Positions 22,104 to 25,713 of a stretch of 34,439 nt of DNA are shown in pieces (positions within the stretch are counted from its first letter, which is position 1; each line of letters opens with the position of its first letter). Origin of the DNA: an uncultured bacterium (GTDB lineage Bacteria > Cyanobacteriota > Vampirovibrionia > Gastranaerophilales > Gastranaerophilaceae); contig CADBOZ010000028.1 of the NCBI GenBank assembly GCA_902796515.1, forward strand, positions 1 to 34,439. The letters run 5' to 3'. Position numbers and translations under genes: made by a program. Under the pieces are notes generated by a model. It did no database searches. It saw only the letters and a list, made by a program, of their open reading frames with translations, and was not told the origin of the DNA.

Positions 22104-22568
22104 TTACATGAATATTTTAAGTATTTCGTTAAATAAATTTAATATAAAGTTTACAATTATAGTAAAAATACCATTTTCTTCATTTACGGAAGTGTCAATA
22201 TGCTTCGGTTTATTTATGTACCATAAAGCTATATTATAGTCTTCACAGAGCTTTTTTATCCTGTAGTAATATTTAAAATCTTTTTTGCTTTCAATAATTA
22301 AAACTATCCCCGGACGTCTTGCGGTTTTACTGGCATAATACAGGCTTTGTCCTATGCTTTCCGCCCATTTTGGTGCAAAATCGAATTCAACGGCATAATC
22401 TAATGTAAGACAATCAACCCTTGTGCCGTCAGGAAGCAAATGTTCCATTTCACCCTTTTGCTCGTCACACCAGATTTTTTGATAATATTTCTCGGGTAAA
22501 TCATGCTTTGCTGCAGCACTCAACTCCAGAGCAATCAGACAAAAAATAATTAAAAAACATTTTTTCAT
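22104..22568 (-). CDS. secreted PD-(D/E)XK nuclease-like protein
   Basis: 154 aa. A signal peptide is visible (MKKCFLIIFCLIALELSAAA, 1-20). The core has DGTRVDCLT (Asp52), AVEFDF (Glu61, Asp63), W68 and GQSLYYA, with a Q-x-x-x-Y arrangement at Gln74/Tyr78. The order Asp, Glu-x-Asp, QxxxY resembles RecB-like PD-(D/E)XK nuclease folds, although the usual Lys is absent at Glu61+2. Small exported proteins with the same W-A-E-S-I-G-Q segment occur widely, without a named function that I know. The frame extends upstream to a TTG at 22583, but the ATG at 22568 with GGAA upstream starts a proper signal peptide. It follows the helicase gene closely on the same strand. Confidence 0.72.
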   Translation of the reverse strand: MKKCFLIIFCLIALELSAAAKHDLPEKYYQKIWCDEQKGEMEHLLPDGTRVDCLTLDYAVEFDFAPKWAESIGQSLYYASKTARRPGIVLIIESKKDFKYYYRIKKLCEDYNIALWYINKPKHIDTSVNEENGIFTIIVNFILNLFNEILKIFM

Positions 22569-22584
22569 TGAAAATCGTTCCAAA

Positions 22585-25500
22585 CTACATATTTATTGCT
22601 TGCCTTATTCTGTCAAGACAACTTTCGGGAGATATATTCCATTCTCTTTTTGTAATTCTTATTACCTGATATCCCGCTCTTTCAATAATAGATTGTTTTT
22701 TCATATCATTATATTTAGGCTGAATATTATCTTCAACGCCGTCAATTTCAACAACCGTTTTATCAATCAGAATATCGGCACTTACGGAACCTATTTCAAC
22801 TCCCGCTTTTATACTACCTTTTTTGGTCGGAAATTCTTCAAGAATGGCTGTATATACTTCTTTTTCAAATGTATTTTTAAAAGTATTTTCAAAAGGTTTA
22901 GAGTTTATCTTCTTAACATATTCAAGATAATCTCTTAAAAGTCCTTCGGGAAGCTCATTTACATCGGTTGAAATATAGTTTATTAATTTATGTCTTGCTC
23001 TTGTTATTGCAACGTTGAATAAATTCGGTTTTTGGGCAAACATAAGGCTTTGCGGATGAGAATTAGGAGCATAAGTCCAGCTCAAAAGCATTATATCTCT
23101 TTCATCCCCTTGAAATGTATGAGCGGTACCCGTATCAATCTTGTGTTTTAAAATTGTATCCGTATCAAATACTTTCAACAACGCTTTTTTTATTAAATCA
23201 ACCTGTGCTCTGAAAGTAGAAATAATCCCGATTGAAACAGGTTCGCCCGATGTATTCTCATCTCTGTCTTTAATAATTAATTCTTGAAGTGTTTTGACGA
23301 TTTCTTCGCATTCCGATACATTTCTTGTTGCATCATGGTCAACTTTACCGTCGCGAACTATTCTTAATTCAACAATATTGCCTGTATTAATTTTCGGACT
23401 CATAATTTTGATTTTTCCGCCGTAAAATTCCTTGCTTGAAAATTCAATAATGGGAGCGGGAGAGCGAAAATGTTCATCAAGCAGAACAGGGCTTGTTGAA
23501 TAATAATTTGCAAGGTCAAACATTGAATTATCCCTAAAGCGCCACATGAGTTGATATCTGTCATCAATTCCGTATTGAGCCAAAAAGCTTTGTTCTTTTG
23601 CTTTTTCAAGGAAGGAAAGATGGGGCAATTGCTTATCATCCCCTACTATTATTGCCTTTTTAGCTCTGAATAATACGGGAATGCAGCTTGCAATATCACA
23701 TTGGGATGCTTCGTCAATTATAACAACATCAAACATTGCGGGTTTTAATGGTAAACTGTTTGAAATAGCGTACGTTGTAGTACACCAGCACGGGAAAGCA
23801 TTTAAAAGCGGTTTAAAGTCTTCTTTTTCCATGACTCTTGATTGCAGATTTGCTTTTCTTGAAACAAGAGATTTTGAATGTATCATCAAACGTCTTCTTT
23901 TTCCCGCATCTGTTAAAATATTTTTTATGGCAGTTCTTCTTTTATTTTTCAATATATCGATTGCAAGCTTTTTCTGTTTTGATTTTAAAAGTTTTATTCT
24001 TCTTAAAATCTGATGAAGATTACCTATAGACATAATATCGTCTTCGGTTTTTTTAAGCTTTGCTTCTTCCATTGCAACATTGATTTCATAAGGCAGTCTT
24101 TTGTATATATCTTCATTCAGCGCTTTTTGTAATTTTAAAATTTTCTTTATTTTTTTATATATGAAGAAAAGTTTAATTTTATCAAATATATTTTTTTTGT
24201 ATTTCTTTTCAATTTCTTCAATCTTATTAAAGATTTTTTTTGCATTTTCAAGCTCTTCATAGCTTACTTTATTTACAAGCAAGGTAAGTGCTGCAATTGA
24301 GTCTTTTGCGCTTTCAAATTCTTCAAGTATGTTTGTATATTTTTTTTCTAAAGACAATATCGATAAAGCGGAATCTTCAAGACGTCTTATATCTTTAAGA
24401 AGATCTTTCATATCATCAATATCCGCCGTCATATTATCGTCAAAACCTTCGTTAAGGTTGACTTTGTTTGACAGCAGCTCCTGTAATTCAAGATTTAATT
24501 GCTTCTGATAGTTGCTTCTTCCTGCTCTCAGTGCAAGATACGGAGCATTTAATTCATTCAATCTTTCCGCTACAACATCTACCGCTTTATCCATTCTGCT
24601 TGCAACAAGTACGGATTTACCGTTTGCAATTAAATGCGCAACCGTATTAACTATTGTTTGGCTTTTTCCCGTTCCGGGAGGGCCATATACGGCAAGAAAA
24701 TCATTTTCTTCGATTTTTCTTATAACTTCTTCCTGTGAATCCGATAAACTTAACGGTGTTATGGGGAAAAAGTTATCAAGCTGTTGTTCTTCAATTTTAA
24801 TATTACTTTGTCCCGTTGACTCCAAAAATTCCTGATTTATGACATTTAACACCGTTTCCCTGTGTACTCCGGACGGTTTTTCGGCTATTTGCATAAGTTC
24901 ATGCAACACTCCTGCCGTTACTGTCGGGCGCGTGGTTAAAATCACGGCTTGAGTGTATTCAAGATTTAAGGTTTCAACTTTTACCTTTGGTGTATTTTGT
25001 ATTGTTTCAATCGAGTCGAAATCAAATTCACCGTTTTCTATGTTTTTTACAAGGTCTTCTTTTGAAAATTCTCTGTTATAAAAATCCGCTTCATCCTGTT
25101 TGATATCCGAAATATTGCCGATATTAAGAGAAATATTTATATCGGGCACAAGGGATTTTAATGTTGTTAAAAACACGTCCAAATCTTCTTTTTTCAAAGG
25201 TAATTCCGGAACAACATCCAACAATCCCGACAACATTGCGTCGGTTTCCTGCTCGTCTTCTCTTTGAATTAGCTGCGCTATTGCTCCTGTATTTAAAGAA
25301 AGCGTATCTTCAAGAATTGATAATTGAAGATTAACACCATTTCTTTCAAGTTTCGCCGGAGCGTACAACAAAGGAGTTAAAAATTCATTATTTTTCTTTG
25401 ATTTCCCGTTTTTTCCGACCAGAAACAAATACCCGTATATTAAATATTTATCCTTTGTATTCATTTCGGATTGTATCATAAGCTCGGTCAGGTAGCTGTT

Positions 25501-25713
25501 TGTACCGTCAAGCAAGAGAGGTTCGGCGAAAGCTGAGAATACTTTTTCTTCACCCTCTAAAAAAGCCCATTTATTTTCCTTATCGCCTTTTAAATTCCTG
25601 AACGTGGAAGATTTAACTTCTTCTCTTACACAATCATGAAGATAATTACATATTTTTTTAATAAAGCTTCCTCTAAAAGCATTTTTGATGGCATTCGGTA
25701 CGGTTTGCAACAT
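22585..25713 (-). CDS. SF1 (UPF1-like) helicase with C-terminal endonuclease domain
   Basis: 1042 aa. The helicase core has Walker A GPPGTGKS (344-351), a Walker B DEAS box (667-670) in IIDEASQCD, GDDKQLP (691-697), HTFQGDERD (865-873) and the arginine motif VAITRAR (901-907). A long helical insert (about 430-640) separates motifs I and II. The N-terminal 300 residues look like the accessory domain of multidomain AAA_11/AAA_12 helicases. The C-terminus (950-1042) is a Vsr/DUF559-like nuclease: Asp980 in ADILID, Glu989 and Asp991 in VEIDG, then GYQVIRIT. Such proteins act in DNA repair or phage defence; which applies here is open. AGGA supports the start. Confidence 0.9.
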   Translation of the reverse strand: MLQTVPNAIKNAFRGSFIKKICNYLHDCVREEVKSSTFRNLKGDKENKWAFLEGEEKVFSAFAEPLLLDGTNSYLTELMIQSEMNTKDKYLIYGYLFLVGKNGKSKKNNEFLTPLLYAPAKLERNGVNLQLSILEDTLSLNTGAIAQLIQREDEQETDAMLSGLLDVVPELPLKKEDLDVFLTTLKSLVPDINISLNIGNISDIKQDEADFYNREFSKEDLVKNIENGEFDFDSIETIQNTPKVKVETLNLEYTQAVILTTRPTVTAGVLHELMQIAEKPSGVHRETVLNVINQEFLESTGQSNIKIEEQQLDNFFPITPLSLSDSQEEVIRKIEENDFLAVYGPPGTGKSQTIVNTVAHLIANGKSVLVASRMDKAVDVVAERLNELNAPYLALRAGRSNYQKQLNLELQELLSNKVNLNEGFDDNMTADIDDMKDLLKDIRRLEDSALSILSLEKKYTNILEEFESAKDSIAALTLLVNKVSYEELENAKKIFNKIEEIEKKYKKNIFDKIKLFFIYKKIKKILKLQKALNEDIYKRLPYEINVAMEEAKLKKTEDDIMSIGNLHQILRRIKLLKSKQKKLAIDILKNKRRTAIKNILTDAGKRRRLMIHSKSLVSRKANLQSRVMEKEDFKPLLNAFPCWCTTTYAISNSLPLKPAMFDVVIIDEASQCDIASCIPVLFRAKKAIIVGDDKQLPHLSFLEKAKEQSFLAQYGIDDRYQLMWRFRDNSMFDLANYYSTSPVLLDEHFRSPAPIIEFSSKEFYGGKIKIMSPKINTGNIVELRIVRDGKVDHDATRNVSECEEIVKTLQELIIKDRDENTSGEPVSIGIISTFRAQVDLIKKALLKVFDTDTILKHKIDTGTAHTFQGDERDIMLLSWTYAPNSHPQSLMFAQKPNLFNVAITRARHKLINYISTDVNELPEGLLRDYLEYVKKINSKPFENTFKNTFEKEVYTAILEEFPTKKGSIKAGVEIGSVSADILIDKTVVEIDGVEDNIQPKYNDMKKQSIIERAGYQVIRITKREWNISPESCLDRIRQAINM

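What the first reader, a model, noticed from the sequence alone, without database searches (positions are those of the whole stretch)
22104..25713. SF1 helicase-nuclease adjacent to a secreted QxxxY nuclease-like protein
A 1042-aa UPF1-like helicase with a Vsr-type C-terminal nuclease is followed within 16 bp by a small protein with a signal peptide and an Asp-Glu-x-Asp-QxxxY core. Large helicase-nucleases of this type occur in phage defence and repair. Pairing with an exported nuclease-like protein is unusual. Either the genes are simply neighbours, or the second acts on DNA in the periplasm (uptake, scavenging or defence).
Basis: inference. Interest (0 to 1): 0.5.

Follow-up and report, generated by a model that had tools for sequence, protein, structure and literature searches.

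The report
Exported phage-associated nuclease beside core helicase
The helicase and the small secreted protein are neighbours only by a local rearrangement, but the small protein belongs to an unnamed family of exported nuclease-fold proteins shared by gut bacteria and many phages, probably acting on foreign DNA outside the cytoplasm.

Summary
The two genes exist as described, on the minus strand, 16 nt apart. The pairing is not a system. In the same bacterial family the helicase is a near-universal gene (143 of 146 genomes). The small gene is patchy (97 of 146) and lies elsewhere in every other genome compared; adjacency recurs only in one close relative with the same synteny.

The small protein is the interesting part. 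It belongs to a family without any Pfam, NCBIfam, PADLOC or PHROG model. Members have a Sec signal peptide, two paired cysteines, and a confident PD-(D/E)xK fold (best solved match EndoMS/NucS, Z 9.7). The RecB-like motif is invariant, except that the catalytic lysine of motif III is Asp and an invariant Lys sits four residues later. Distant cytosolic relatives show the opposite arrangement, so the lysine seems to have migrated. At least 92 viral contigs carry relatives, often beside repressors or integrases, or in Mu-like early regions.

Most likely it is a periplasmic DNase that cuts incoming foreign DNA (rival phage or transforming DNA). It would work like the periplasmic prophage DNases of Campylobacter, but from an unrelated fold. 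Fold, export and motif are well supported computationally; catalysis and biological role are inferred.

The parts
22104..22568 (-). Small exported protein, 154 aa, from ATG 22568 (ORF open from TTG 22583)
22509..22568 (-). Sec signal peptide, residues 1-20 (MKK, hydrophobic core, A-A-A)
   Evidence: sequence; family-wide hydrophobicity test; cleavage site inferred
22107..22508 (-). Mature domain, PD-(D/E)xK fold, model pLDDT 94.7
22491..22493 (-). E26, motif I glutamate, 158 of 158 relatives (one gap)
22413..22415 (-). D52, motif II aspartate, 159 of 159
22386..22388 (-). E61, motif III glutamate, 159 of 159
22380..22382 (-). D63 in the place of the canonical catalytic lysine (157 D, 2 E of 159)
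22368..22370 (-). K67, proposed migrated lysine (158 of 159)
22335..22349 (-). Q74-xxx-Y78, RecB-type QxxxY motif (Q 158, Y 159 of 159)
22467..22469 (-). C34, proposed disulfide partner of C53
22410..22412 (-). C53, proposed disulfide partner of C34
22110..22181 (-). C-terminal amphipathic helix seen in this genus (mature residues 110-133)
   Evidence: hydrophobic moment reached by 19 of 1000 shuffles
22585..25713 (-). SF1 (UPF1-like) helicase, 1042 aa, core gene of the bacterial family; a neighbour, not a partner
22594..22869 (-). C-terminal MTES_1575/DUF559 nuclease-like domain of the helicase

Best explanation
The small protein is a secreted, disulfide-stabilised nuclease of the PD-(D/E)xK fold that works in the periplasm. 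There it cuts double-stranded DNA that is on its way into the cell (rival phage genomes, DNA taken up by competence) and cannot touch the host chromosome because it is outside the cytoplasm. Temperate and Mu-like phages carry it as an extra gene to keep competitors out; gut Gastranaerophilales keep chromosomal copies for the same purpose. The neighbouring helicase is a vertically inherited housekeeping gene that came to lie beside it by local rearrangement. Well supported by computation: fold, export signal, motif conservation, cysteine pair, phage carriage, non-pairing. Inferred: catalysis by the shifted lysine, substrate, and biological role.
For: [quoted passage not shown] The best solved matches are EndoMS/NucS (Z 9.7 and 9.5, rmsd 2.8 and 2.3, 93 and 89 aligned) and AF1548 (Z 7.9, rmsd 2.9, 92 aligned); CdiA-CT, PaqCI, BamHI, YaeQ and ERCC1 follow at Z 5.3-6.8. 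Motif: NucS E127, D160, E174, K176, Q187, Y191 (passage) map on E26, D52, E61, D63, Q74, Y78 with equal spacing from E174/E61 onward. Conservation 157-159 of 159. Export: hydrophobic leader 185 of 190 against 309 of 2000. Cysteines: both present in 156 of 160 rows, both lost together in L096 and L097. Lysine: six cytosolic cyanobacterial relatives have E-x-K and no lysine at position 67. Phages: 92 viral contigs and 8 phage records. Of 261 flanking genes, 16 match repressor family phrog_4 and 5 downstream ones integrase family phrog_1; in a control of 130 genes 7-8 places away neither family reaches 2. Swap: an exported 8-Cys protein adjoins this family in viral loci and adjoins Endonuclease_1 or SNase DNases in others. 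Prophage periplasmic DNases block transformation in Campylobacter (passages).
Against: No nuclease activity has been measured, and the canonical lysine is absent. In Gastranaerophilales the gene sits in ordinary chromosomal loci, so a housekeeping or nutrient role is possible. ComEC is in 59 of 60 family genomes, so presence of the gene does not track loss of competence. The 8-Cys partner is not a dedicated one: in 26 family genomes with it, only 10 have it beside this gene, and only one of five Endonuclease I prophages examined has it. The Salicola phage SCTP-2 copy lies beside ribonucleotide reductase genes, not a lysogeny module.
Confidence: 0.5

Rival explanations
1. Exported nuclease that degrades extracellular or periplasmic DNA for nutrients or biofilm turnover in gut bacteria; phages picked it up as a fitness gene for the lysogen.
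For: Chromosomal, syntenic copies in Gastranaerophilales beside enolase and flagellar genes; Sec signal.
Against: Carriage by many phages beside repressors, integrases and Mu-like GemA and in a 440-kb phage is not what nutrient scavenging predicts.
Confidence: 0.2
2. Catalytically dead PD-(D/E)xK protein that binds DNA or an envelope protein and blocks injection without cutting.
For: Motif III lysine replaced by Asp in 157 of 159 relatives.
Against: All other catalytic positions are invariant or nearly so and K67 is in 158 of 159; cytosolic relatives show the reciprocal K63 / no K67 pattern; lysine migration to the following helix is described for other families of the fold (PMC1913061 passages).
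Confidence: 0.15
3. Helicase and exported protein form a two-part defence system.
For: Same strand, 16 nt apart; the same arrangement in close relative L065.
Against: Adjacent in 1 of 97 family genomes with the small gene; in the same genus the helicase has other neighbours; the two would act in different compartments.
Confidence: 0.02
4. Secreted toxin or effector of unknown target that merely uses the nuclease fold.
For: Weak Tox-REase-9 similarity in 5 of 112 members, best E 0.017; structural similarity to CdiA-CT, Z 6.8.
Against: The mature protein is a single nuclease-like domain with no delivery module, and no conserved immunity gene accompanies it.
Confidence: 0.08

Closest known systems
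Prophage and ICE-encoded periplasmic DNases that block natural transformation (Campylobacter CJIE1 Dns, Vibrio ICE IdeA)
   Same: Small exported nuclease carried by a mobile element; the Endonuclease I of Helicobacter prophages can lie near GemA, as some members of this family do
   Different: Those examined are Endonuclease_1 (PF04231); this family has no such match and a PD-(D/E)xK fold. IdeA family identity was not checked here (the name is recalled).
EndoMS/NucS mismatch endonuclease
   Same: Same fold and RecB-like motif with equal spacing
   Different: Cytosolic, two-domain (recalled), canonical lysine; this family is exported, one domain, lysine shifted
SNIPE, membrane-bound anti-phage nuclease (PMC13190303)
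   Same: Proposed logic: self and non-self told apart by place, cutting DNA during injection
   Different: SNIPE is a GIY-YIG nuclease facing the cytoplasm with DUF4041; this is a soluble periplasmic PD-(D/E)xK protein
P22 SieA and other superinfection-exclusion proteins
   Same: Prophage gene acting at DNA entry
   Different: SieA is an inner-membrane blocker (passage), not a nuclease-fold protein
Cytosolic cyanobacterial and KilA-N-linked giant-virus homologues
   Same: Same domain by profile or fold
   Different: No signal peptide, no cysteine pair and canonical E-x-K in the six cyanobacterial ones read

Membership tests
[quoted passage not shown]
PD-(D/E)xK phosphodiesterase superfamily | Motif II Asp and motif III (D/E)-x-K | tested here: inconclusive
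   D52 and E61 invariant; the lysine position is Asp, with a nearly invariant Lys four residues on
PD-(D/E)xK phosphodiesterase superfamily | Metal-dependent nuclease activity | not testable with these tools
   needs a bench assay
RecB/NucS-type nucleases | QxxxY in the helix after motif III | tested here: met
   Q 158 of 159, Y 159 of 159; spacing as in NucS
Endonuclease_1 periplasmic DNases (Dns/EndA) | PF04231 match | tested here: not met
   no match for P0001 at E 10; not among the 25 families shown for 112 members at E 1
MGE-encoded periplasmic anti-transformation DNases | Sec export | tested here: met
   by hydrophobicity; no SignalP run
MGE-encoded periplasmic anti-transformation DNases | Carried by a mobile element | tested here: inconclusive
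   yes in phages; the window copy is chromosomal
MGE-encoded periplasmic anti-transformation DNases | Inhibits transformation | not testable with these tools
   needs a bench assay
SNIPE | GIY-YIG nuclease with DUF4041 | tested here: not met
   no such Pfam match
Anti-phage ProA / Hhe (for the helicase) | NCBIfam equivalog cut-off | tested here: not met
   187.6 bits against 1500, 117 against 2000
SF1 UPF1-like helicase with MTES_1575/DUF559 nuclease | AAA_11, AAA_12 and DUF559 above Pfam cut-offs | tested here: met
   MTES_1575 itself 33.9 against 38.2 bits

The most novel reading that the evidence does not exclude
A widespread, unnamed class of periplasmic restriction-fold nucleases, exchanged between phages and Gram-negative bacteria, that destroys rival DNA in transit through the envelope. 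Its catalytic lysine was relocated when a cytosolic nuclease became an exported, disulfide-bonded one.
Probability: 0.4. Interest if true: 0.72.

Novelty: new variant of a known kind. Interest (0 to 1): 0.5.

Why it matters
If right, a small protein domain found in at least 92 viral contigs and 408 genome stretches (best 80 of each kept), with no Pfam, NCBIfam, PADLOC or PHROG match for the window copy, is a new fold for DNA restriction in the periplasm. The question whether envelope-located nucleases are a general layer of phage exclusion could be tested with one 100-residue protein.

Tried and rejected
Helicase-nuclease pair: rejected by synteny. Mobile defence island for the helicase: rejected, since it is in 143 of 146 genomes, mostly as one copy, and misses the ProA and Hhe cut-offs. 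PDB profile search with A2 gave no match up to E 10, and Foldseek on the PDB gave no match at E 0.001, so the fold rests on VIA-align rows, topology and motif. Plasmid search gave none. ComEC presence does not discriminate. The 8-Cys protein as a dedicated partner or immunity protein: rejected as too loosely linked. DUF1048 similarity (E 0.003, 18.4 against a 29.6-bit cut-off) rejected as chance over the C-terminal part.

Rows dropped: 9 near-duplicate viral loci of 80. The control used 130 of 158 genes listed. The structure alignment used 112 sequences out of 138 dereplicated relatives plus the window. 8-Cys neighbours scanned: 118 of 132 listed. L018 and L118 gave no usable family ORF. Gene calls in loci are my own longest-ORF picks, not curated. 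PHROG counts are per family, so one neighbour can be counted under several families.
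Full report
OBSERVATION. Both genes are on the minus strand: helicase 22585-25713 (1042 aa), then 16 nt, then a 154-aa protein from ATG 22568 to the stop at 22104. The genome is a 1.85-Mb draft of 150 contigs. The nearest named records are Candidatus Gastranaerophilales, and the closest locus, L065, is titled only 'uncultured bacterium'.

THE PAIR. In 146 genomes of the same family the helicase is found in 143, mostly as one full-length copy at 53-83% identity. The small gene is in 97, with up to six matches in a genome. I compared the printed places of the two calls by eye: only the window's own genome has them adjacent; the next nearest is G024 at 8.9 kb. L065 (87% identical small protein) shows the same gene order as the window. 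In six same-genus genomes the helicase has other neighbours (L036-L041), while in other Gastranaerophilales loci the small gene lies beside enolase, the flagellar flg genes and a TPR gene, in L066 and L076 followed by the same glycosyltransferase-like gene as in the window (gene names by eye). Those flg and TPR genes are also in the window, at 29.9-34.0 kb. So the small gene stayed near that region and the helicase came to lie beside it by local rearrangement. This part of the finding is ordinary. The helicase has AAA_11, AAA_12 and DUF559 matches above cut-off and fails the NCBIfam anti-phage cut-offs; its near-universal single-copy presence suggests a housekeeping nucleic-acid role (inference).

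THE SMALL PROTEIN. It has no Pfam, NCBIfam, PADLOC or PHROG assignment. A genome-contig scan found 408 relatives (best 80 kept), which besides Gastranaerophilales include loci labelled Geobacter/Geotalea, Nitrospirae, Desulfobacterales, Oceanobacter, Rickettsiales and Alphaproteobacteria; two loci labelled Clostridiales or Clostridiaceae were not checked. A viral-contig scan found 92 (best 80 kept). Named phages: Nitratiruptor NrS-2 to NrS-5, Rhizobium RR1-A, Dulem virus 31 and Salicola SCTP-2.

Conservation over 159 relatives: E26 158 (one gap), E42 158 (one gap), R50, D52, E61 and Y78 159, D63 157 (E in the other two), K67 158, Q74 158. Of 160 rows with the window, C34 and C53 are both present in 156 and both absent in two (L096, L097, two contigs of one assembly, hence probably one event); L143 and L187 lack a C34 match only. 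This fits a disulfide, as expected for an exported protein.

FOLD. AlphaFold2 on 112 window and contig sequences gave mean pLDDT 94.7. VIA-align rows are headed by EndoMS/NucS (Z 9.7, rmsd 2.8, 93 aligned; Z 9.5, rmsd 2.3, 89 aligned), then AF1548 (7.9), CdiA-CT (6.8), PaqCI (6.6), AF2093 (6.4), with BamHI, ERCC1 and YaeQ at 5.2-5.6; below that unrelated Rab proteins appear at 4.4-4.7. That several of these are PD-(D/E)xK proteins is partly recalled. Foldseek alone was not significant on the PDB; on BFVD it found a 161-aa protein (34% identity, E 2.5e-9, no name given) and KilA-N proteins of giant viruses at about 1e-6. A review lists D160, E174, K176, E127, Q187 and Y191 as the RecB-like residues of P. 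abyssi NucS (PMC7343888, passages seen). From E174 onward the spacing (+2 K, +13 Q, +17 Y) equals that of E61, D63, Q74, Y78.

LYSINE SHIFT. A family-profile search of 194 genomes of the phylum found 68 with matches, 59 in the window's own family and 9 weak ones in other families. I fetched six of these nine. All six have E-x-K at motif III, lack the cysteine pair, and have N, G, Q or D where the exported family has K67. The exported family thus has the reciprocal pattern. Migration of this lysine to the following helix is described for other PD-(D/E)XK families (PMC1913061, passages seen). So I expect an active enzyme, but this is inference.

EXPORT. 185 of 190 family members with enough upstream sequence have a 12-residue stretch with hydropathy of at least 1.8 before the domain, against 309 of 2000 other ORFs; 178 of 190 have a small-x-small site close by. 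This is a heuristic, not SignalP.

CONTEXT IN PHAGES. After dropping 9 near-duplicates of 80 viral loci, I scanned genes 1-2 places away (132 upstream, 129 downstream) and a control 7-8 places away (130 of 158 listed). Repressor family phrog_4: 10 and 6, and in the control not among those with 2 or more. Integrase family phrog_1: 5 downstream, likewise not in the control. In Oceanobacter locus L116 GemA (PF06252, E 5.7e-29) is two genes upstream; a GemA-like cluster (named by eye) occurs near 9 of 80 viral copies (before dereplication). RR1-A has it beside the integrase, Dulem virus 31 beside a CI gene, NrS-2 within three genes of a repressor. The SCTP-2 copy has no such context.

A SHARED NEIGHBOUR. 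An exported 8-cysteine protein (GCCSHHGGVCGC...CCDG.SPSC) lies near the family in 30 of 193 loci by a motif search. A separate viral scan for it gave 40 loci. Seven hold this family by profile, six immediately adjacent (L243, L244, L247, L248, L259, L279; L247/L248 look the same). L254 and L256 hold the Endonuclease_1 gene of the Helicobacter apodemus prophage next to it (PF04231, E 6.1e-27; annotated as deoxyribonuclease), and L269 an SNase gene (PF00565, E 4.3e-22). So exported nucleases of three unrelated families can occupy the same slot. Against a strict link: of 26 family genomes with the 8-Cys gene only 10 have it beside this gene, 14 of its other neighbourhoods that I read show no obvious nuclease by eye, and of five Endonuclease I prophages looked at only H. 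apodemus has it.

MECHANISM. Prophage DNases of Campylobacter, one described as periplasmic (CJIE1 dns), reduce natural transformation (PMC3995785 passages; PMC11472951 passages). SNIPE shows that cutting DNA at injection by a nuclease held at the envelope is an effective defence (PMC13190303, abstract, section 9 and passages). Combining export, fold, motif and phage carriage, the best explanation is a periplasmic DNase against incoming DNA. Steps shown by computation: export signal, fold, conservation, phage carriage. Steps inferred: activity, substrate, benefit.

NOVELTY. As a kind of actor (mobile-element periplasmic DNase) there is precedent; the fold, the lysine shift and the breadth appear new. 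Searches for 'periplasmic nuclease' with phage terms, and 'exported nuclease' with prophage, found no description of this family; only the listings of those searches were seen except the papers named.

Noticed in passing
L107:1917-2102, L145:6140-6421, L242:3905-4147 and others: Exported 8-cysteine protein without any Pfam match, adjacent to unrelated exported nucleases in several phages and also found alone.
   Followed up: partly
L238, L240 and BFVD hits: The same domain occurs in cytosolic proteins with extra N-terminal regions (in L238 Bro-N-like, in L240 a helix-turn-helix, as recalled by eye) and in KilA-N proteins of giant viruses.
   Followed up: partly
L032:7896-8291 (Rhizobium phage RR1-A, RHXG_00034): The annotated start lies about 32 codons too far downstream and hides the signal peptide.
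   Followed up: no
L033 (PP511318.1, Dulem virus 31): Record is filed under Microviridae but is 35.8 kb with CI repressor and replisome genes, so its taxonomy label looks wrong.
   Followed up: no
window 22110-22181: Genus-specific amphipathic C-terminal helix (19 of 1000 shuffles reach its moment) that might hold the protein at a membrane.
   Followed up: partly
window 22585-25713: The helicase-nuclease is a near-universal single-copy gene of this family (143 of 146) whose function is unknown.
   Followed up: partly
G060, G098, G061 and others: Some genomes show three to six matches to the exported nuclease gene, some with internal stops or split frames, suggesting turnover.
   Followed up: no
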